Shown: piece by piece, positions 15,185 through 34,022 of the stretch
How the letters are laid out: every line of letters begins with the position of its first letter
How positions within the stretch are numbered: position 1 is the first letter of the stretch
Source: an uncultured Bacteroidales bacterium
Lineage (GTDB): Bacteria > Bacteroidota > Bacteroidia > Bacteroidales > Paludibacteraceae
Assembly (NCBI GenBank): GCA_902792535.1
Contig: CADAZU010000024.1
Location: forward strand, 1-34,639
Direction of reading: 5' to 3'
Length of the DNA: 34,639 nucleotides
The notes under the pieces: model-generated
Databases searched by the model: none
The model's input: the letters and a program-made list of their open reading frames with translations, nothing else
Told to the model about the DNA's origin: nothing
Made by a program: the position numbers and the translations under genes

Positions 15185-17834
15185 ATCCTTTCAGCGCTTT
15201 GATCGCTTCTTCGAGGGAAGCGATACGCGCCTCTGCATCCGCTTTTTTCTTGCGTTCGAGTTCTACGATTTCGGGTTTCGCATTCGCTACAAACCGCTCG
15301 TTGGAGAGTTTCGCCATTACGCCGCGGAGGAATCCTTGCTGGTGTGCCAGGTCGGCTTCCAGTTTCTTCAACTCTTCCTCGACATTGATGAATGCGTCCA
15401 TCGGAATGGCATATTCGACAGTTCCTACAAGGAACGTCGATTTGTTATTTGACATTTGAGATTTGTCATTGGCGATTGCTACGTTGGCGAGTTTCTGGAG
15501 CAGAGCGGCGTATTCGTAGGCGTCGGCTCCCTCGAAATAGAGCGTCAGAGTCTCTTTCTGGGGAATGTTCTTCGACGCGCGGATATTACGTACACCGGAT
15601 ACTATTTCTTTCAGGGTATTCATCCGATTCAGTACCGTCTCGTTTACGTCTCGTTTACGTCTCGTTTCCGTCTCGTTTACGTCTTTGACAGCAACCATAA
15701 TACTTTCTCCATCTTTTCTGGTGTAGAGTTCGTGCCAGAGTTCTTCGGTAATGAACGGCATGAAGGGGTGGAGCAGACGGAGCAGCCGGTCGAAGAACGC
15801 CAGCGTCGCTTCGTAAGTTGCGCGGTCGATCGGCTGTTGGTATGCGGGTTTGATCATCTCCAGATACCAGCCGCTGAACTCGTCCGTATAGAGCTTGTAG
15901 ATCGCCATAAGCGCCTCGGAGAGACGGTATTTGGAGAAGAGATCCGCCACTTCGGCTTCGGTCTCTCCCAGTTTGGCTTCGAACCATTCGATCGCATCTT
16001 TTGCTGTTTTGGGCTGCTCAATGTCTGCTACTTCAAACCCTTTGACGAGGCGGAAACAATTCCATATCTTGTTGCAGAAGTTACGTCCCTGTTCGCAGAG
16101 CGAATCATCGTACAGAATATCGTTTCCTGCGGGCGCCGAGAGGAGAATACCCATACGCACGCCGTCGGCTCCGAAACGCTCGATGAGGTCCAGCGGATCA
16201 GGACTGTTACCCAGCGATTTGGACATCTTGCGACCGAGTTTGTCGCGCACGATACCCGTGAAATAGACGTGCTTGAACGGCATCTTGCCCACGTATTCGT
16301 AGCCCGCCATGATCATTCGTGCCACCCAGAAGAAGATGATATCCGGTCCGGTTACAAGATCGGCGGTGGGGTAGTAATACTGTATCTCTTTGTTGCCCGG
16401 ATTCTCGATGCCGTCGAAGAGGCTGATCGGCCAGAGCCAGGAGCTGAACCATGTATCCAGCGCGCCCTCGTCCTGTACGTAGTTGCCTTCGGGTTTGGTT
16501 TCCGAAACGATGATCTTGTCGTCCGGGTAGTTCTCCAGACCCGTCTGCGCCAGCAGATCCGTGTCGTAGTACGCCGGAATACGGTGTCCCCACCAGAGCT
16601 GGCGGCTGATACACCAGTCTTTGATGTTCTCCAGCCAGTTGCGGTAGGTGTTCTTGTATTTGGCGGGGTAGAAGACGATCTCGTCGTTCATTACCGGCGG
16701 GAGTGCGATGTCTGCGAAATGCTGCATCTTGACGAACCACTGGAGCGAGAGCCGCGGCTCAATAGGCACGTTCGTACGCTCGGAGTAACCCACTTTGTTG
16801 TCGTAGTCTTCTATTTTCTCCACGAGTCCGAGCGCCTGCAGGTCTTCCACGATCTGCTTGCGGCAGTCAAAACGGTCCATGCCGTGGTATTTGCGTACGT
16901 TGGGCTGGAGTTCCAGTTCTACCGTGTCCATGTTCAGATGGGCGTCCGGCGTGAAGATGTCGATGGTCTTCAGGTTGTATTTCTGTCCGAGGGCGTAGTC
17001 GTTCACGTCGTGCGCCGGCGTCACTTTGAGGCAGCCGGTACCGAAACCGATCTCTACGTAACGGTCCTCGATGATAGGGATCACACGTCCCACGCCCGGC
17101 ACGATCACATGCTTGCCTTTGAGCCACTGGTTCTTCTCCTCCTTGGGGTTGATGCAGACGGCTATATCGCCGAAGATGGTCTCCGGACGGGTAGTAGCTA
17201 CGATGGCGTACTTGCCCGGCTCCTCCGCTACTTCGTAGCGCAGGTAGTAGAATTTGTTATGCTCGTCGTGGTAGATTACCTCCTCGTCGGAGAGGGCAGT
17301 CTGGCGCTCCGGATCCCAGTTGACCATTCGCAGACCGCGGTAGATGAGTCCTTTCTTATAGAGGTCGCAGAAGACATGAATGACTGCCTTGGAGCGCGTT
17401 TCGTCCATGGTGAAGGCGGTGCGGTCCCAGTCGCAGGAGCAACCGAGCTTGCGTAACTGCTTAAGGATGATACCTCCGTGCTCGTCCGTCCAGTCCCAGG
17501 CGTGTTTGAGGAACTGCTCGCGGGTCAGGTCGGACTTGTTAATTCCTTGCTCTTTGAGCCTCTTGATCACTTTCGCTTCCGTGGCGATGGAGGCATGGTC
17601 CGTACCGGGTACCCAGCAGGCATTCTTGCCCTCCAGACGTGCGCGGCGAACGAGAATGTCCTGGATCGTCTCGTTCAGCACATGCCCCATGTGGAGCACA
17701 CCCGTTACGTTAGGCGGGGGAATAACGATGGTGTAAGGAGCGCGCCCGTCCGGCTCGCTGTGAAATAACTTATTGTCCAGCCAGTATTGATACCAGCGGG
17801 CTTCAATTTCAGTAGGATTGTACTTTGAGTCCAT
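15183..17834 (-). CDS. valS: Valyl-tRNA synthetase
   Basis: It charges tRNA-Val and is a class I synthetase. HMGH is at residues 48-51, the editing-domain block [10 protein letters not shown] follows, and KMSKS begins near residue 536. A C-terminal coiled-coil arm ends the protein ([17 protein letters not shown]...). The start is ATG 17834 ([18 protein letters not shown]); an ATG 30 bases upstream would add an AT-rich, non-conserved leader. Length is 883 residues, normal. Two short repeat arrays lie within the coding sequence, an 11-base array at 15637-15680 and a 7-base array at 15440-15481. Both fall in the region between the anticodon-binding domain and the C-terminal arm, where length varies in the family. 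Confidence 0.97.
15440..15481. repeat. Heptanucleotide array inside valS
   Basis: Six 7-base units start at 15440, 15447, 15454, 15461, 15468 and 15475, with ATTTGNN in the first four and ATTGNNN in the last two. Together they encode the Ser/Asn/Lys-rich stretch before [11 protein letters not shown]. Confidence 0.75.
15637..15680. repeat. Eleven-base tandem array inside valS
   Basis: Four units of GTCTCGTTTAC (one with a single change) start at 15637, 15648, 15659 and 15670, and a partial fifth follows. On the coding strand they give the [16 protein letters not shown] stretch. The unit length is not a multiple of three. Confidence 0.85.
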
Positions 17835-17898: not shown

Positions 17899-18000
17899 CT
17901 GCTTTTTTTCGAAATACGCAAGAGAAATCGCTTTTTGGGTTGATTTTTCTTCTTGAATCCTATTCTGAGAGGTTACTGTGGTTATACTCCGGCTATACAA

Positions 18001-18055
18001 ATAACATAATAATAACATAATAATAACATAATAATCACATAATAATATCATAATG
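18001..18055. repeat. Eleven-base tandem array upstream of the amidase gene
   Basis: Five 11-base units (consensus ATAACATAATA) start at 18001, 18012, 18023, 18034 and 18045. They lie in the valS-amidase spacer (17835-18204), which otherwise holds only the two divergent promoters. Confidence 0.85.
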
Positions 18056-18168
18056 ATTACAGCAAGAATGGAGAATGGGGAAAAAAGGGGTGTTTGTAGT
18101 ATGTAGACGAATTTTAGCGAGTACGGACGAATTTTTTCTTTTTATTTGCATATTTGGCAAAGTTTTTG

Positions 18169-20231: not shown

Positions 20232-20505
20232 ATGTCAGCAAAATATTAAAAAACCGAACACTCTCTTGTTTGGCTGTTTTCTAAATTGCAAAAATTTTAA
20301 ACAAGTACTTCTGCGCTGTAAATCAACAGATTGTGAAACTTATCAACAAGTGGTATTTGTGGAACATTTTTTGTGATTCCGCTAAAAATCAGCACTTTAC
20401 AAGTTCCACGATTTTGTAAATGCTTGTCTTTTCAAATATTACGACTTAACTTGCTATAAATGCGCCAGTTAGGTTTCGACGCATTTTGCTCAGTCGAGTT
20501 GCGAT
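20232..20505. other. Possible replication origin (oriC) between the MCE gene and dnaA
   Basis: This AT-rich, gene-free spacer upstream of dnaA holds TTATCAACA (20340-20348), one mismatch from the DnaA box TTATCCACA. A weaker inverted candidate lies at 20358-20366 (TGTGGAACA). An inverted repeat TTTACAA...TTGTAAA lies near 20396-20420. Only one box is close to consensus, so this is a suggestion. Bacteroidota origins are not always beside dnaA. Confidence 0.3.
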
Positions 20506-20528
20506 TTGGTCATGTCAAAAAAAAGCAG

Positions 20529-20537
20529 TACCTTTGC
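20529..20537 (+). promoter_or_regulatory. Promoter of dnaA (TACCTTTGC)
   Basis: TTG lies 23 bases upstream of TA, and TGTCA plus an A-tract plus GCAG fills the spacer. The leader is about 90 bases and contains a terminator-like hairpin. Confidence 0.75.
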
Positions 20538-20562
20538 ACTCGATTTCGTACCAGAGGCACGT

Positions 20563-22060: not shown

Positions 22061-23692
<1,632 letters not shown>

Positions 23693-23968
23693 TTATTGAA
23701 TTTTTGCTAATACTTCACTTTGTTTCATGATTTGGAATTTCTCGCCGTCCAGTTCGAACTCCGTGCCAGCCCATTTGCCGAACAACACTTCGTCGCCTAC
23801 TTTCAGAACCATAGGCTCGTCTTTCGTTCCTTCGCCTACAGCGATCACTTCGCCGCGCATGGGCTTCTCTTTCGGGTCATCAGGAATAATAATTCCTCCT
23901 ACTGTCTTTTCCGGTGCAACCGCCGCCTTGATCAGCACGCGGTCTGCTAATGGTTGAATCTTGCTCAT
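23693..23968 (-). CDS. groES: Co-chaperonin GroES
   Basis: GroES is the seven-subunit lid of the GroEL chamber. The 91-residue protein has [10 protein letters not shown] at the start, the mobile-loop region [15 protein letters not shown], and the GEVIAVGEG and [12 protein letters not shown] blocks. It is first in the groES-groEL operon. Its control region on the minus strand (23969-24110) lacks a TTTGC promoter and a CIRCE element. Instead it shares a 9-base repeat leader and a -24/-12-like element with dnaK. Confidence 0.98.
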
Positions 23969-23988
23969 GATAATATGTTTTTTAGTTA

Positions 23989-24051
23989 TTAATCTAGTTT
24001 ATCTAGTTTAACTAGTCGAACTAGGGGATCTAGTTTATCTAGTAGAATCAG
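23989..24051 (-). repeat. Nine-base repeat leader of groES, seven units
   Basis: Seven contiguous 9-base units, read on the minus strand as CTAGNTNNN (first unit CTGATTCTA), run from 24051 down to 23989. Units 3, 4 and 5 (CTAGATCCC, CTAGTTCGA, CTAGTTAAA) are identical and in the same order in the dnaK leader. Neighbouring CTAG words can pair as weak hairpins. Confidence 0.9.
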
Positions 24052-24066
24052 GCTCGCTATGAATAT

Positions 24067-24083
24067 GACAAACGGCATGCCAA
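24067..24083 (-). promoter_or_regulatory. Candidate -24/-12 promoter of groES
   Basis: On the minus strand TTGGCAT-N4-GTTTGTC matches the spacing of a sigma-54 promoter (TGGCAC-N5-TTGC) with GT for GC at -12. The same arrangement lies before dnaK at 31981-31997. TGCCA/TGGCA inverted repeats lie just upstream (24084-24109). Confidence 0.45.
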
Positions 24084-24158
24084 GAGTGGCAAATATGCCA
24101 TTTTGGCAGAATTATCGACAAAGCGACAACTTTTTTTGCACATGTCAAAAAAAAAGTG

Positions 24159-24167
24159 TACCTTTGC
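24159..24167 (+). promoter_or_regulatory. Promoter of ubiE (TACCTTTGC)
   Basis: TTG is 23 bases upstream of TA; the spacer has TGTCA and an A-tract. The ubiE ATG lies 7 bases past the box, so the transcript may be leaderless. Confidence 0.75.
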
Positions 24168-24174
24168 ACCGCAA

Positions 24175-24870
24175 ATGGAGCAGGAAAAGCAACATATAGG
24201 TCAACTCTTCGATCGCATCGCCCGTACTTACGATGGTTTGAATCATGGTCTGTCGCTGAATATCGATCGCTCTTGGCGGCGCAAGACGGTGCGCCGGATG
24301 AAGCCAGCCCAGCATGTCTTGGACGTAGCGATCGGTACGGCGGATCTGACGATAGAGATGCTGCGGAGAGGCAAAGCCGAGCGGGTGACAGGATTGGATT
24401 TGTCTCGGGAAATGATGGCAATCGGTGAGCAAAAAACAGCCTCGCGCCAACTCTCTTCCCGGGTGACGTTTGTCTATGGGAATGCCCAGCAGATGCCTTT
24501 TCCCGATTCCTCTTTTGATGCGGTTACATGCGCCTTCGGCTGCCGCAATTTCAGTGACCTCGATGCCGGACTGAGAGAGATGTGCCGTGTCCTGAAACCC
24601 GGTGGGCAGGTGACAATTCTGGAGTTCTCCTATCCCTCTAATCCCCTCGTGCGCGCGCTATACGATATTTATTTCACGCGCGTGTTGCCTTTCGTCGGAC
24701 GGTTGGTCAGCCGCGACAAGACGGCGTACACCTATCTCAATAGGAGCGTCAAGTCCTTCTGCTGGGGAGAGACCTTTGTGCAACATTTGCGCGAAGCGGG
24801 GTTCGGGCAAGCGCATTTCGAACCGCTTACTTTTGGTATTGCAACGATTTATACAGCTATAAAATGGTAA
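24175..24870 (+). CDS. ubiE: Demethylmenaquinone methyltransferase UbiE/MenG
   Basis: It transfers a methyl group from SAM to demethylmenaquinone, the last step of menaquinone synthesis. The 231-residue protein shows IARTYDGLNHGLSLNIDRSWRR in two parts, typical of UbiE. The SAM site is VLDVAIGTADLTIEML; the more common form is DxATGTGD, so this has Ile for Thr and Ala for Gly. FGCRNFSDLDAGLREMCRVLKPGG follows. I start at ATG 24175 because an earlier in-frame ATG at 24103 precedes the promoter box. It overlaps the Dabb gene by 7 bases. Confidence 0.93.
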   Translation: MEQEKQHIGQLFDRIARTYDGLNHGLSLNIDRSWRRKTVRRMKPAQHVLDVAIGTADLTIEMLRRGKAERVTGLDLSREMMAIGEQKTASRQLSSRVTFVYGNAQQMPFPDSSFDAVTCAFGCRNFSDLDAGLREMCRVLKPGGQVTILEFSYPSNPLVRALYDIYFTRVLPFVGRLVSRDKTAYTYLNRSVKSFCWGETFVQHLREAGFGQAHFEPLTFGIATIYTAIKW

Positions 24871-31943: not shown

Positions 31944-31980
31944 TCTGCCATTTTGTCAGCCTTATTCTGCCAAAACCCAT
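31944..31980 (+). promoter_or_regulatory. TGCCA/TGNCA boxes upstream of dnaK
   Basis: TGCCATTTTGTCA (31946-31958 region) is followed by TTCTGCCAAAA, the latter shared with the groES control region; TGCCAAA and TTTGGCA form an inverted repeat about 31969-31985. These may bind an activator or repressor of the chaperone genes. Confidence 0.45.
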
Positions 31981-31997
31981 TTGGCACAAACTTTGTC
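31981..31997 (+). promoter_or_regulatory. Candidate -24/-12 promoter of dnaK
   Basis: TTGGCAC-N4-CTTTGTC has sigma-54-like spacing, with GT instead of GC at -12. The groES region has the same element at the same distance from the conserved TCATAGCGA. No TTTGC-type promoter is seen before dnaK. Confidence 0.45.
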
Positions 31998-32012
31998 TTA
32001 CTCATAGCGAAC

Positions 32013-32075
32013 CTGGTTCGACTAGATCAACTAGATCCCCTAGTTCGACTAGTTAAACTGGATAAACTGGATTAT
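32013..32075 (+). repeat. Nine-base repeat leader of dnaK, seven units
   Basis: Seven contiguous 9-base units start at 32013 and every 9 bases to 32067, pattern CTRGNTNNN. Units 3 to 5 (CTAGATCCC, CTAGTTCGA, CTAGTTAAA) are the same as in groES. The array ends 21 bases before the dnaK ATG. Confidence 0.9.
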
Positions 32076-32096
32076 TAACTAAAAATACATACAACT

Positions 32097-34022
32097 ATGA
32101 GCAAGATTATTGGAATTGACCTCGGTACCACGAACTCGTGTGTAGCCGTAATGGAGGGTAACGAACCTATCGTTATTGCCAACTCGGAAGGTAAACGTAC
32201 TACTCCTTCTGTTGTCGGATTTATTGATGGTGGTGAGCGCAAAGTGGGAGACCCTGCTAAACGTCAAGCCATTACCAACCCGACCAAAACTATTTATTCG
32301 ATCAAGCGTTTCATGGGCGAGACCTACGACCGCTTGCAGTCTGAGATCGCACGCGTTCCTTATAAAGTATCGAAGGGCGACAACAACACCCCGCGTGTGG
32401 ACATCGACGGACGTCTCTATACCCCGCAGGAGATCTCGGCTATCATCCTCCAGAAGATGAAAAAGACCGCAGAGGAATACCTCGGACAGGAGGTTACCGA
32501 AGCTGTCATCACCGTTCCTGCGTACTTCAATGACTCGCAGCGTCAGGCTACCAAGGAAGCCGGTGAGATCGCAGGACTCAATGTCCGCCGTATCGTCAAC
32601 GAGCCGACTGCAGCAGCACTCGCGTACGGTCTTGATAAGTCCAACAAGGATATGAAGATTGTGGTCTTCGACTGCGGTGGTGGTACACACGATGTATCGG
32701 TTCTCGAGCTCGGCGACGGTGTCTTCGAGGTAAAAGCAACCGATGGTGATACCCACCTCGGTGGTGACGATTTCGACCACCGTATTATCGAATGGCTCGT
32801 TTCGGAGTTCAAGGCGGAGAACGGCGGTGCCGATCTGAGCAAGGACCCGATGGCGATGCAGCGACTCAAAGAGGCGGCTGAGAAAGCGAAGATCGAACTT
32901 TCTTCCTCGACCTCTACGGAAATCAACCTGCCGTATATCATGCCGGTGAACGGAGTGCCTGCGCACCTCGTTAAGACCCTGACCCGTGCTAAATTCGAGC
33001 AGCTCATCGACGACCTCATCCAGCGTACCATCGCTCCGTGTCGTACCGCTCTTGAACACGCGGGACTCAAAACATCCGATATTGACGAGATTATCCTCGT
33101 AGGTGGTTCGACACGTATCCCGGCTATCCAACAGGCGGTTGAGAAGTTCTTCGGCAAAGCGCCGTCCAAAGGCGTTAACCCGGACGAAGTAGTGGCTGTC
33201 GGAGCTGCTATCCAAGGCGGTGTCCTTACCGGTGAAGTAAAGGATGTCCTCCTCCTCGATGTCACCCCGTTGTCCCTCGGTATCGAGACCATGGGCGGTG
33301 TCATGACCAAGATGATTGAGGCGAACACCACCATCCCGACCAAGAAAACAGAGACTTTCACCACCGCGGTGGATAATCAACCTTCTGTCGAGATCGTCAT
33401 CTACCAGGGCGAGCGGCCTATGGCGGCGCAGAACAAACTGCTCGGACGCTTCCACTTGGACGGTATCATGCCCGCACGGCGTGGAGAACCGCAGATCGAA
33501 GTTACCTTCGATATCGACGCCAACGGTATCCTTAATGTAACTGCAAAGGATAAAGCTACCGGCAAAGACGCGAAGATCCGTATCGAAGCTTCGTCCGGAC
33601 TCTCCGATGAGGAGATCAAACGAATGAAAGCCGAAGCCGAAGCCAATGCCGAAGCCGATAAGAAGGCGAAAGAGCAGGCGGAGAAACTCAACCGTGCCGA
33701 CGCTACGATCTTCCAGACCGAGAAACAACTCGCGGAATTCGGCGATAAGATCCCGGCGGACAAGAAAGCTCCGATTGAGGAAGCCCTCAAGAAACTCAAA
33801 GAGGCGTACGAGAAACGCGACGCAGATGCCTGCGAAGCAGCCAACAACGAACTCATGACCGCTTTCCAAGCCGCTTCCGCTGAGATGTACGCTGCCCAGC
33901 AGCAGGCTCAGCAGAATGCCGGTCAACCCGGAAATGCCGGAACCTCTGGCAACTCTGGAAACAACGGCAATAACGGAGACAACCCTTCTGCAGAGGACGT
34001 TGACTTCGAAGAAGTGAAGTAA
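32097..34022 (+). CDS. dnaK: Molecular chaperone DnaK (Hsp70)
   Basis: DnaK is an ATP-driven folding chaperone working with DnaJ and GrpE. The 641-residue protein shows [17 protein letters not shown], the family blocks [30 protein letters not shown] (DLGGGT type with Cys for Leu and His for Phe), and [12 protein letters not shown]. The substrate-binding domain (from about 390) has [11 protein letters not shown]. The C-terminal tail is Gln/Asn/Gly-rich and ends DVDFEEVK, a typical DnaK ending. dnaJ and grpE are not in the window. Confidence 0.99.

What the first reader, a model, noticed from the sequence alone, without database searches (positions are those of the whole stretch)
31944..32096. 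groES and dnaK share one repeat-built leader, with no CIRCE element
Seen directly: the leaders of dnaK (32013-32075, +) and groES (23989-24051, -) each hold exactly seven 9-base CTAG units; units 3-5 are identical and in the same order, so a run of nearly 30 bases is unchanged. The flanks (TCATAGCGARCC before, TAACTAAAAA after) also match. The two loci lie 8 kb apart on opposite strands. The palindromic CTAG words can form weak hairpins that heat would melt. Inference: this is a chaperone-specific 5' leader, perhaps an RNA thermometer or protein-binding array, copied or kept alike by gene conversion.
Basis: partly seen in the sequence, partly recalled or inferred. Interest (0 to 1): 0.85.

Follow-up and report, generated by a model that had tools for sequence, protein, structure and literature searches.

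The report
Dispersed CTAG arrays, not heat sensors
The repeat stretch in front of two heat-shock genes is one of many short CTAG repeat arrays scattered through gut Bacteroidales genomes, here probably copied once from one gene's leader to the other's, and it shows no sign of sensing heat.

Summary
In detail: groES and dnaK leaders share about 105 nt (87%), each with seven 9-nt units, six and four of them with exact CTAG; no CIRCE in the window. The chaperone reading fails. The genome has 56 places of (CTAGN5)2CTAG (reversed control 4), in leaders, gaps between same-strand genes, and genes such as those of DNA polymerase I and ArgRS. Four-unit arrays with steps of 8, 9 or 10 occur in 62, 71 and 15 of 121 genus genomes. 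Unlike simple repeats found in other phyla, the CTAG core is nearly invariant while neighbouring spacers differ at about 40% of sites. Gap arrays start near the previous stop codon and end a median 22.5 nt before the next start. The groES leader is a chimera that, from promoter box to start codon, best fits one old transfer from dnaK. Both genes carry sigma54-like promoters, a control already reported for Bacteroidota chaperones. Folding opposes a thermometer. The closest known kind is dispersed TAACTGA heptamer repeats; new here are the fixed core with variable spacer, steps that differ between genomes, and repeat families that replace each other at one site. The reading factor, if any, is unknown.

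The parts
32013..32075 (+). dnaK leader array, seven 9-nt units (CTGG, CTAG x4, CTGG x2)
   Evidence: TRF
23989..24051 (-). groES leader array, seven 9-nt units (CTGA, then CTAG x6)
   Evidence: TRF
31981..32085 (+). dnaK copy of the shared 105-nt block (promoter box + leader), the older copy by inference
23979..24083 (-). groES copy of the shared block, derived from a dnaK leader by inference
31981..31997 (+). sigma54-like promoter box TTGGCAC-N4-TTTGTC of dnaK (GT where the consensus has GC)
24067..24083 (-). sigma54-like promoter box of groES
24096..24109 (-). CTGCCA/TGGCA inverted repeat upstream of groES, possible activator site; also present upstream of groES in G031
   Evidence: reading
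31945..31972 (+). CTGCCA...TGTCAG and second CTGCCA upstream of dnaK, possible activator site
   Evidence: reading
32097..34022 (+). dnaK (Hsp70)
23693..23968 (-). groES (Cpn10)
22061..23689 (-). groEL (Cpn60)

Best explanation
The two leader arrays are members of a dispersed family of short arrays in Bacteroidales: a fixed core, AACTAG in this species group, repeated at a fixed step (9 here; 8 and 10 also occur in the genus) with a few freely varying bases between cores. The groES copy arose when a tract from promoter box to start codon was copied once from the dnaK leader in the ancestor of three close species. Shown: the dispersed family, its position and orientation, the fixed core with variable spacer, and the chimeric groES leader. 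Inferred: direction and number of the transfer; that the arrays work in the mRNA, as an open spacer between stop codon or transcription start and the ribosome-binding region, read by a CUAG-binding RNA-binding or ribosomal protein at fixed register, tuning translation or stability of many unrelated genes. Heat control of groES and dnaK would come from the sigma54-like promoter, not from the array.
For: 56 places genome-wide, reversed control 4; 71 of 121 genus genomes with four-unit 9-step arrays, control non-zero in 3 of 121. Outer CTAGs 18 apart: middle is CTAG in 56 of 62, 103 of 104 and 69 of 74 (G000, G088, G083), while neighbouring spacers differ at 0.43, 0.37 and 0.41 per site, against 0.075 in other taxa. 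Position: my gene caller put 47 of 73 arrays in codirectional gaps and 16 of 73 in coding sequence, with 85-88% of the sample coding; two of the 47 (L140, L321) belong in a PAP2 gene, so 45 and 18. Of 36 gap arrays with both gene ends within 200 nt, median 3.5 nt after the stop and 22.5 nt before the next start. AACTAG on the sense strand in 28, antisense in 9, tie in 8 of the 45; inside genes sense 4, antisense 13, tie 1 of 18; two-sided p 0.0007. Aligned arrays between the three species: core differences 28/556, spacer 48/545, one-sided p 0.009, 30 pairs not independent; ratio 0.57 against 0.95 in a neutral simulation. Chimeric groES leader. Start region open.
Against: 18 of 73 arrays lie inside genes, mostly with AACTAG antisense, which an mRNA role does not explain. 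Core constraint between species is modest: by genome pair p is 0.10, 0.25 and 0.05. Spacers inside an array are somewhat more alike (0.36-0.44) than between arrays (0.51), so some local duplication occurs. No common function in ten proteins at or beside arrays. No reading protein found; the TrpR family, chosen for its CTAG operator (recalled), passes its cut-off in 0 of 121 genomes. At three sites another repeat family stands in the place of the CTAG array in a sister species, which weakens a sequence-specific role. No expression data.
Confidence: 0.42

Rival explanations
1. Mutational filler: a biased slippage or copying process makes tandem arrays wherever sequence is tolerated (leaders, operon gaps, protein linkers); they have no function.
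For: Arrays also sit in genes of DNA polymerase I, UvrD/PcrA, ArgRS, a pyridine-nucleotide-disulphide oxidoreductase and a PAP2 protein; unit number differs between close species, one array is absent in G000, and at three sites a different repeat stands in its place; many other 7-11-nt tandem families in the same genome; spacers slightly more alike within than between arrays.
Against: Simple duplication predicts equal decay of core and spacer; core identity is 97.5-99.8% per site while spacers differ at about 40%. Consecutive spacer pairs are shared between arrays no more than after permuting spacers within arrays (3 vs 2.8, 13 vs 14.2, 4 vs 6.9; against permutation among arrays G000 is slightly high, 29 of 500 shuffles reach it), against block copying. 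Orientation bias.
Confidence: 0.33
2. DNA-level lattice: a cooperative DNA-binding protein (like MetJ or omega repressor on tandem boxes, recalled) coats CTAG cores at a fixed step and organises the chromosome or represses transcription.
For: Palindromic core; fixed step; genomes differ in step: of 58 genomes with at least 10 four-unit places, 14 are at least 90% nine-step and 12 at least 90% eight-step; a common ratio gives about 4 such genomes, at most 12 in 2000 simulations (counts). Would work in genes as well as in gaps.
Against: Most arrays lie in gaps between same-strand genes or just upstream of starts, poor places for a classical repressor; a strand bias is not expected for a DNA-level palindrome; TrpR family absent above cut-off (other families not tested); 32 of 58 genomes mix both steps.
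Confidence: 0.17
3. Chaperone-specific RNA thermometer.
For: Leaders fold better than most shuffles (12 of 200 and 8 of 200 shuffles as low; on a longer stretch dnaK z -2.67, groES z -1.14).
Against: Start region 75% and 79% unpaired at 37 C; 195 and 190 of 200 shuffles are as closed or more closed; opening from 37 to 45 C is 0.022 and 0.035 against 0.029 and 0.037 in shuffles (from an inferred +1). Array not chaperone-specific. No thermometer family in Rfam reaches its gathering score in the window.
Confidence: 0.03
4. Footprints of a mobile element that targets and duplicates CTAG and leaves a few bases on excision; repeated visits build the array.
For: Gives fixed core, short variable spacer and fixed step at once; fits the lack of shared unit order between arrays.
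Against: No such element was searched for; spacers are strongly biased to end in AA (59 of 81, 114 of 129, 73 of 92 units in G000, G088, G083).
Confidence: 0.05

Closest known systems
TAACTGA heptamer direct repeats of Beggiatoaceae, Cyanobacteria and five Bacteroidetes (MacGregor 2015, PMC4679880; abstract, twelve passages and section 15 seen)
   Same: Dispersed short tandem repeats, in the main genome mostly just upstream of start codons, some overlapping the previous gene's stop; some inside ORFs, in reverse orientation; no functional theme; translational role proposed.
   Different: Exact 7-nt unit, related heptamers rarely repeated in the main genome; here a fixed core with a few variable bases, steps of 8, 9 and 10, and several repeat families.
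BrickBuilt minisatellite/MITE of Porphyromonas gingivalis (PMC4596501; abstract and outline seen)
   Same: Dispersed tandem repeat in a Bacteroidales genome.
   Different: 23-nt unit, leader and tail with inverted-repeat ends, always intergenic; here a 9-nt unit, and arrays also within genes.
Cyanobacterial STRR heptamers (recalled; search listing only)
   Same: Dispersed short tandem repeats.
   Different: Not compared by sequence here.
sigma54 promoters of Bacteroidota chaperone genes (PMC12316311; passages seen)
   Same: GroES and GrpE stated to be sigma54-dependent in B. thetaiotaomicron; a cluster with GroEL, GroES and DnaK enriched in Bacteroidota.
   Different: Concerns the promoter, not the array.
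Tandem operator lattices: MetJ met boxes, omega heptads, TrpR operator CTAG-N4-CTAG (all recalled)
   Same: Short core at a fixed 7-8-bp step.
   Different: No such protein identified here; only the TrpR family was tested, none above cut-off.

Membership tests
RNA thermometer (ROSE, fourU type) | Start region or RBS paired at low temperature and opened by heat | tested here: not met
   (prediction, inferred +1)
RNA thermometer (ROSE, fourU type) | Match to a curated thermometer family | tested here: not met
   only two tRNAs reach gathering score in the window
CIRCE/HrcA control | TTAGCACTC-N9-GAGTGCTAA before groES or dnaK | tested here: not met
   0 matches with up to 3 mismatches in the window; hrcA gene not searched
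sigma54 (-24/-12) promoter | TTGGCAC and GG-N10-GC spacing | tested here: inconclusive
   GG-N10-GT in the window; TGGCAN5TTTG[TC] in 55 of 70 dnaK leaders, nine of them TTTGC as in the consensus (reading), 14 weaker, 1 truncated; groES TGGCAN5NTTG in 27 of 30
sigma54 (-24/-12) promoter | Dependence on RpoN and an activator | not testable with these tools
   needs an experiment; presence of the rpoN gene was not searched
TAACTGA-type dispersed repeats | Many dispersed short tandem arrays, mostly before start codons | tested here: met
TAACTGA-type dispersed repeats | Exact TAACTGA unit | tested here: not met
   unit AACTAG + 3 variable bases
BrickBuilt MITE | 23-nt unit with conserved leader and tail with inverted ends | tested here: not met
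   9-nt unit; apart from the L128/L132 pair, the flanks printed share no common ends by reading
TrpR operator | TrpR-family protein encoded | tested here: not met
   0 of 121 genomes over the cut-off, 5 weak hits below it
Simple microsatellite | Identical or nearly identical units | tested here: not met
   mean spacer difference 0.38 in 79 arrays of Bacteroidales loci (2 with identical spacers), 0.06 in 19 arrays of other taxa (12 identical) found by the same pattern

The most novel reading that the evidence does not exclude
Many Bacteroidales carry a genome-wide lattice code: a palindromic core (CTAG in most; TCCGGA-, CGATAT- or GACCAG-like in some dnaK leaders) at a lineage-dependent step of 8, 9 or 10, read at fixed register by a fast-evolving trans-acting factor on the messenger RNA of dozens of operons per genome. 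Core and step shift together across a genome when the factor changes, which would explain why dnaK leaders keep an array while its sequence turns over.
Probability: 0.2. Interest if true: 0.85.

Novelty: new variant of a known kind. Interest (0 to 1): 0.58.

Why it matters
Dispersed short repeats before bacterial genes have been reported without an established mechanism. Here a large uncultured genus offers many species in which the same site is occupied, empty or filled by another repeat family, a core that stays while the spacer varies, and a step that differs between genomes. That makes function versus mutational by-product testable by comparison and by simple reporter swaps. It also warns against reading a repeated leader at two chaperone genes as a heat device.

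Tried and rejected
Chaperone specificity: rejected. RNA thermometer: rejected on folding. CIRCE: absent from the window. Ongoing gene conversion between groES and dnaK: not supported, leaders group by gene. Block copying between arrays as the general origin: not supported. TrpR family as reader of CTAG: not found over cut-off; the five weaker hits were not followed. A third exact hit of the promoter pattern (G000:C51:3079) lies before a reading frame that is not an evident chaperone by eye and was taken as chance. Tandem in-frame stop codons as the purpose: considered, dropped without a formal test.

Corrections to my own counts: the first core-versus-spacer count was biased towards core conservation because degenerate query units counted as spacer; it was replaced by a register-based count with a neutral simulation, which weakened the result. 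The 40 of 53 figure for 9-nt distances in G000 includes stretches chosen for arrays; in 240 kb not so chosen only 1 of 8 distances up to 30 nt is 9. Whole-genome counts are sounder: four-unit places in G000 at steps 8, 9, 10 are 5, 31, 10. My gene caller missed at least one gene: L140 and L321 were counted as gaps but lie in a PAP2 frame; nine further non-CDS arrays are spanned by ATG frames of 100 aa or more, seven with coding scores of zero or below and two (L333, L335) where the frame looks like a start called too far upstream, so they were left as gaps. The dnaK repeat test (32 of 56 against 13 of 113 controls) drew its controls from one genome and dropped 14 of 70 leaders as too short; of 30 groES leaders only 6 were tested (5 periodic). 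Literature searches; none listed a paper on CTAG arrays of this kind in Bacteroidales, but only open-licence PMC papers are held.

Full report
WHAT IS THERE. The window is contig 24 of a 2.37-Mb, 84-contig genome, completeness 82.65%. Relatives in the same genus match public contigs by length: G083 with JAFTZQ01 (Paludibacteraceae, RGIG4295, two contigs), G088 with CACWZZ01 (Bacteroidales RUG11067, three contigs), G034 with CAJOCN01 and G020 with JAFUEI01 (both Paludibacteraceae, one contig each). So the genus looks like a Paludibacteraceae group from herbivore guts. dnaK, groES and groEL are confirmed. The leaders share a 105-nt inverted repeat at 87%. Each array has seven 9-nt units; six groES and four dnaK units hold an exact CTAG, the others CTGA or CTGG. 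No CIRCE within 3 mismatches in the window.

NOT CHAPERONE-SPECIFIC. The self-complementary pattern (CTAGN5)2CTAG has 56 places in the own genome against 4 for the reversed control. Four-unit arrays at step 9 occur in 71 of 121 genomes of the genus (reversed control non-zero in 3 of 121), at step 8 in 62 of 121 (control non-zero in 7), at step 10 in 15 of 121 (control 0 in all). The step-10 arrays listed often have a G after CTAG on one strand, an extended core (reading).

WHERE THEY SIT. Genes were called by a simple codon-usage method. Arrays with at least three CTAGs: G000 24 arrays (15 codirectional gap, 5 inside CDS, 1 divergent, 1 convergent, 2 edge), G088 26 (18, 5, 1, 1, 1), G083 23 (14, 6, 2, 1, 0). 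Two of the gap arrays (L140 in G000, its counterpart L321 in G088) in truth lie in a PAP2 gene, so 45 of 73 are gap arrays and 18 of 73 in genes. The groES array counts as divergent, because the next gene upstream is on the other strand. Coding fraction was 85-88%. In 36 gap arrays with both gene ends within 200 nt, the array starts a median of 3.5 nt after the previous stop and ends a median of 22.5 nt before the next start; in six the first CTAG supplies the stop codon TAG. After the correction AACTAG lies on the sense strand in 28 gap arrays, antisense in 9, tie in 8; inside genes sense 4, antisense 13, tie 1 (two-sided p 0.0007). In-gene examples: DNA polymerase I, a UvrD/PcrA helicase, arginyl-tRNA synthetase, a pyridine-nucleotide-disulphide oxidoreductase and a PAP2 protein; genes beside gap arrays: a thioredoxin-like protein, an M16 peptidase, a SusD protein, an Omp85 protein and a PRK-domain protein. 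In the other Bacteroidales loci 36 of 75 arrays are in codirectional gaps, 18 in CDS, 15 at edges, 3 convergent, 3 divergent.

FIXED CORE, FREE SPACER. Given two CTAGs 18 nt apart, the middle tetramer is CTAG in 56 of 62 (G000), 103 of 104 (G088), 69 of 74 (G083) and 404 of 424 cases (other Bacteroidales loci), while neighbouring spacers differ at 0.43, 0.37, 0.41 and 0.38 per site. In loci of other taxa the core is equally intact (64 of 67) but spacers differ at only 0.075, and 12 of 19 such arrays have identical spacers, against 2 of 79 in Bacteroidales loci. The unit is better written AACTAG plus W-N-N: 59 of 81, 114 of 129 and 73 of 92 spacers end in AA. Consecutive spacer pairs are shared between arrays no more than after permuting spacers within arrays (3 vs 2.8, 13 vs 14.2, 4 vs 6.9); against permutation among arrays G000 is slightly high (29 of 500 shuffles reach it), the others not. 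Spacers within an array differ a little less (0.36-0.44) than spacers of different arrays (0.51). Between species, aligned arrays differ at 28 of 556 core and 48 of 545 spacer sites (flanks 367 of 5190; one-sided Fisher p 0.009; 30 pairs among three genomes, not independent; single comparisons p 0.10, 0.25, 0.05); a neutral simulation under the same counting gives a ratio of 0.95 against 0.57 observed. Recent constraint is therefore likely but modest, and by itself does not explain the much larger contrast inside arrays; arrays may be made with varied spacers from the start (inference).

STEP DIFFERS BETWEEN GENOMES. Of 58 genomes with at least ten four-unit places at step 8 or 9, 14 are at least 90% nine, 12 at least 90% eight, 32 mixed. 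With a common ratio and arrays as units, about 4 such pure genomes are expected, at most 12 in 2000 simulations, against 26 seen (2.5 places per array is an assumption). In a sample of G035, 9 of 13 CTAG distances up to 30 nt are 8 and 2 are 9.

TURNOVER AT ONE SITE. Orthologous sites in G000, G088 and G083 show unit gain and loss and CTAG to CTGG or CCAG changes; one array of G088 (L326:8220) is absent in G000. At three sites another repeat stands in the place of the array: in arginyl-tRNA synthetase a GTCTGTCAGCGACAGCG-like repeat in G088 (CTAG in G000); at L335:8992/L333:12621 a CTTTGTCAC-like repeat in G000 (CTAG in G083 and G088); at L300:7994 an AATTGAGAATTG-like repeat in G088 (CTAG in G000) (by reading). 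The first of these resembles repeats in dnaK leaders of G002, G034 and G065. Across the genus dnaK leaders carry tandem units of several cores (CTAG, TCCGGA-like, CGATAT-like, GACCAG-like). 32 of 56 testable dnaK leaders are tandem-periodic at 7-11 nt, against 13 of 113 control leaders of G000.

HOW groES GOT ITS COPY. In G083 the groES region upstream of the promoter box matches groES of the next relative G031 (46 of 51; G088 28 of 33, G000 25 of 35), but from the box to the start codon it matches dnaK leaders (83 of 98 to the dnaK of G000 and of G083) and not G031 (45 of 74). Within genes the three species agree at 93-99% (groES) and 97-99% (dnaK); across genes 82-89%. dnaK leaders with the same start (CATAGCGA) occur in other species of the genus. 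One transfer from dnaK to groES before the three species split fits best; G031 keeps another groES leader.

PROMOTERS. Both genes carry TTGGCAY-N4-TTTGTC; the whole own genome has three places of it. TGGCAN5TTTG[TC] is present in 55 of 70 dnaK leaders, nine of these with TTTGC as in the sigma54 consensus (my reading); 14 show weaker forms and one is truncated. groES shows TGGCAN5NTTG in 27 of 30. sigma54 control of chaperone genes in Bacteroidota is already in print (PMC12316311, passages). If the usual spacing to +1 holds, transcription starts just before the array, so the array is nearly the whole 5' UTR (inferred).

NOT A THERMOMETER. From the inferred +1, the start region is 75% (dnaK) and 79% (groES) unpaired at 37 C; 195 and 190 of 200 shuffled leaders are as closed or more closed; opening from 37 to 45 C is 0.022 and 0.035, like shuffles (0.029, 0.037). 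The leaders do fold somewhat better than shuffles (12 and 8 of 200 as low); in the predicted structures much of the pairing is within the array.

COMPARISON. The nearest published kind that my searches found is the TAACTGA heptamer of Beggiatoaceae, Cyanobacteria and five Bacteroidetes (PMC4679880): same placement before start codons, overlap with stops, reverse orientation in ORFs, no functional theme. The variant here has a fixed core with variable spacer and several steps and families. I rate it a new variant of a known kind. Mechanism: an mRNA-level spacer read by a CUAG-binding protein is my first choice, mutational filler a close second; no call decides between them.

Noticed in passing
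window 18000-18054: Five copies of an 11-nt repeat (AATAACATAAT) upstream of the ORF at 18154; another 11-nt repeat at 15636-15684. 11-nt families with related units recur at other loci of the genome.
   Followed up: partly
L324:4651-4731 (G088) against L136:1968-1990 (G000): The same spot in the arginyl-tRNA synthetase gene holds a CTAG array in one species and a different tandem repeat in another.
   Followed up: partly
L129:1964-2024 (G000:C19): A CTAG array with one 11-nt step lies near the start of a gene in a signal-peptide-like stretch; the odd step shifts the reading frame, so expression might vary, or it may be an assembly error (by reading).
   Followed up: no
L128:145-193 and L132:1965-2004 (G000 contig ends): Near-identical CTAG arrays with near-identical flanks beside terminator-like inverted repeats at two contig ends, perhaps parts of one longer dispersed element.
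   Followed up: no
window 20504-20548, 24134-24178 and others: Repeated TACCTTTG-type stretches (families D1, D2), looking like the usual Bacteroidota promoter (recalled).
   Followed up: no
groES and dnaK leaders of the genus (L068-L127): Upstream of many groES and dnaK genes a CTGCCA-N3-TGGCAG-like palindrome recurs; a candidate activator site for the sigma54-like promoter (by reading).
   Followed up: no
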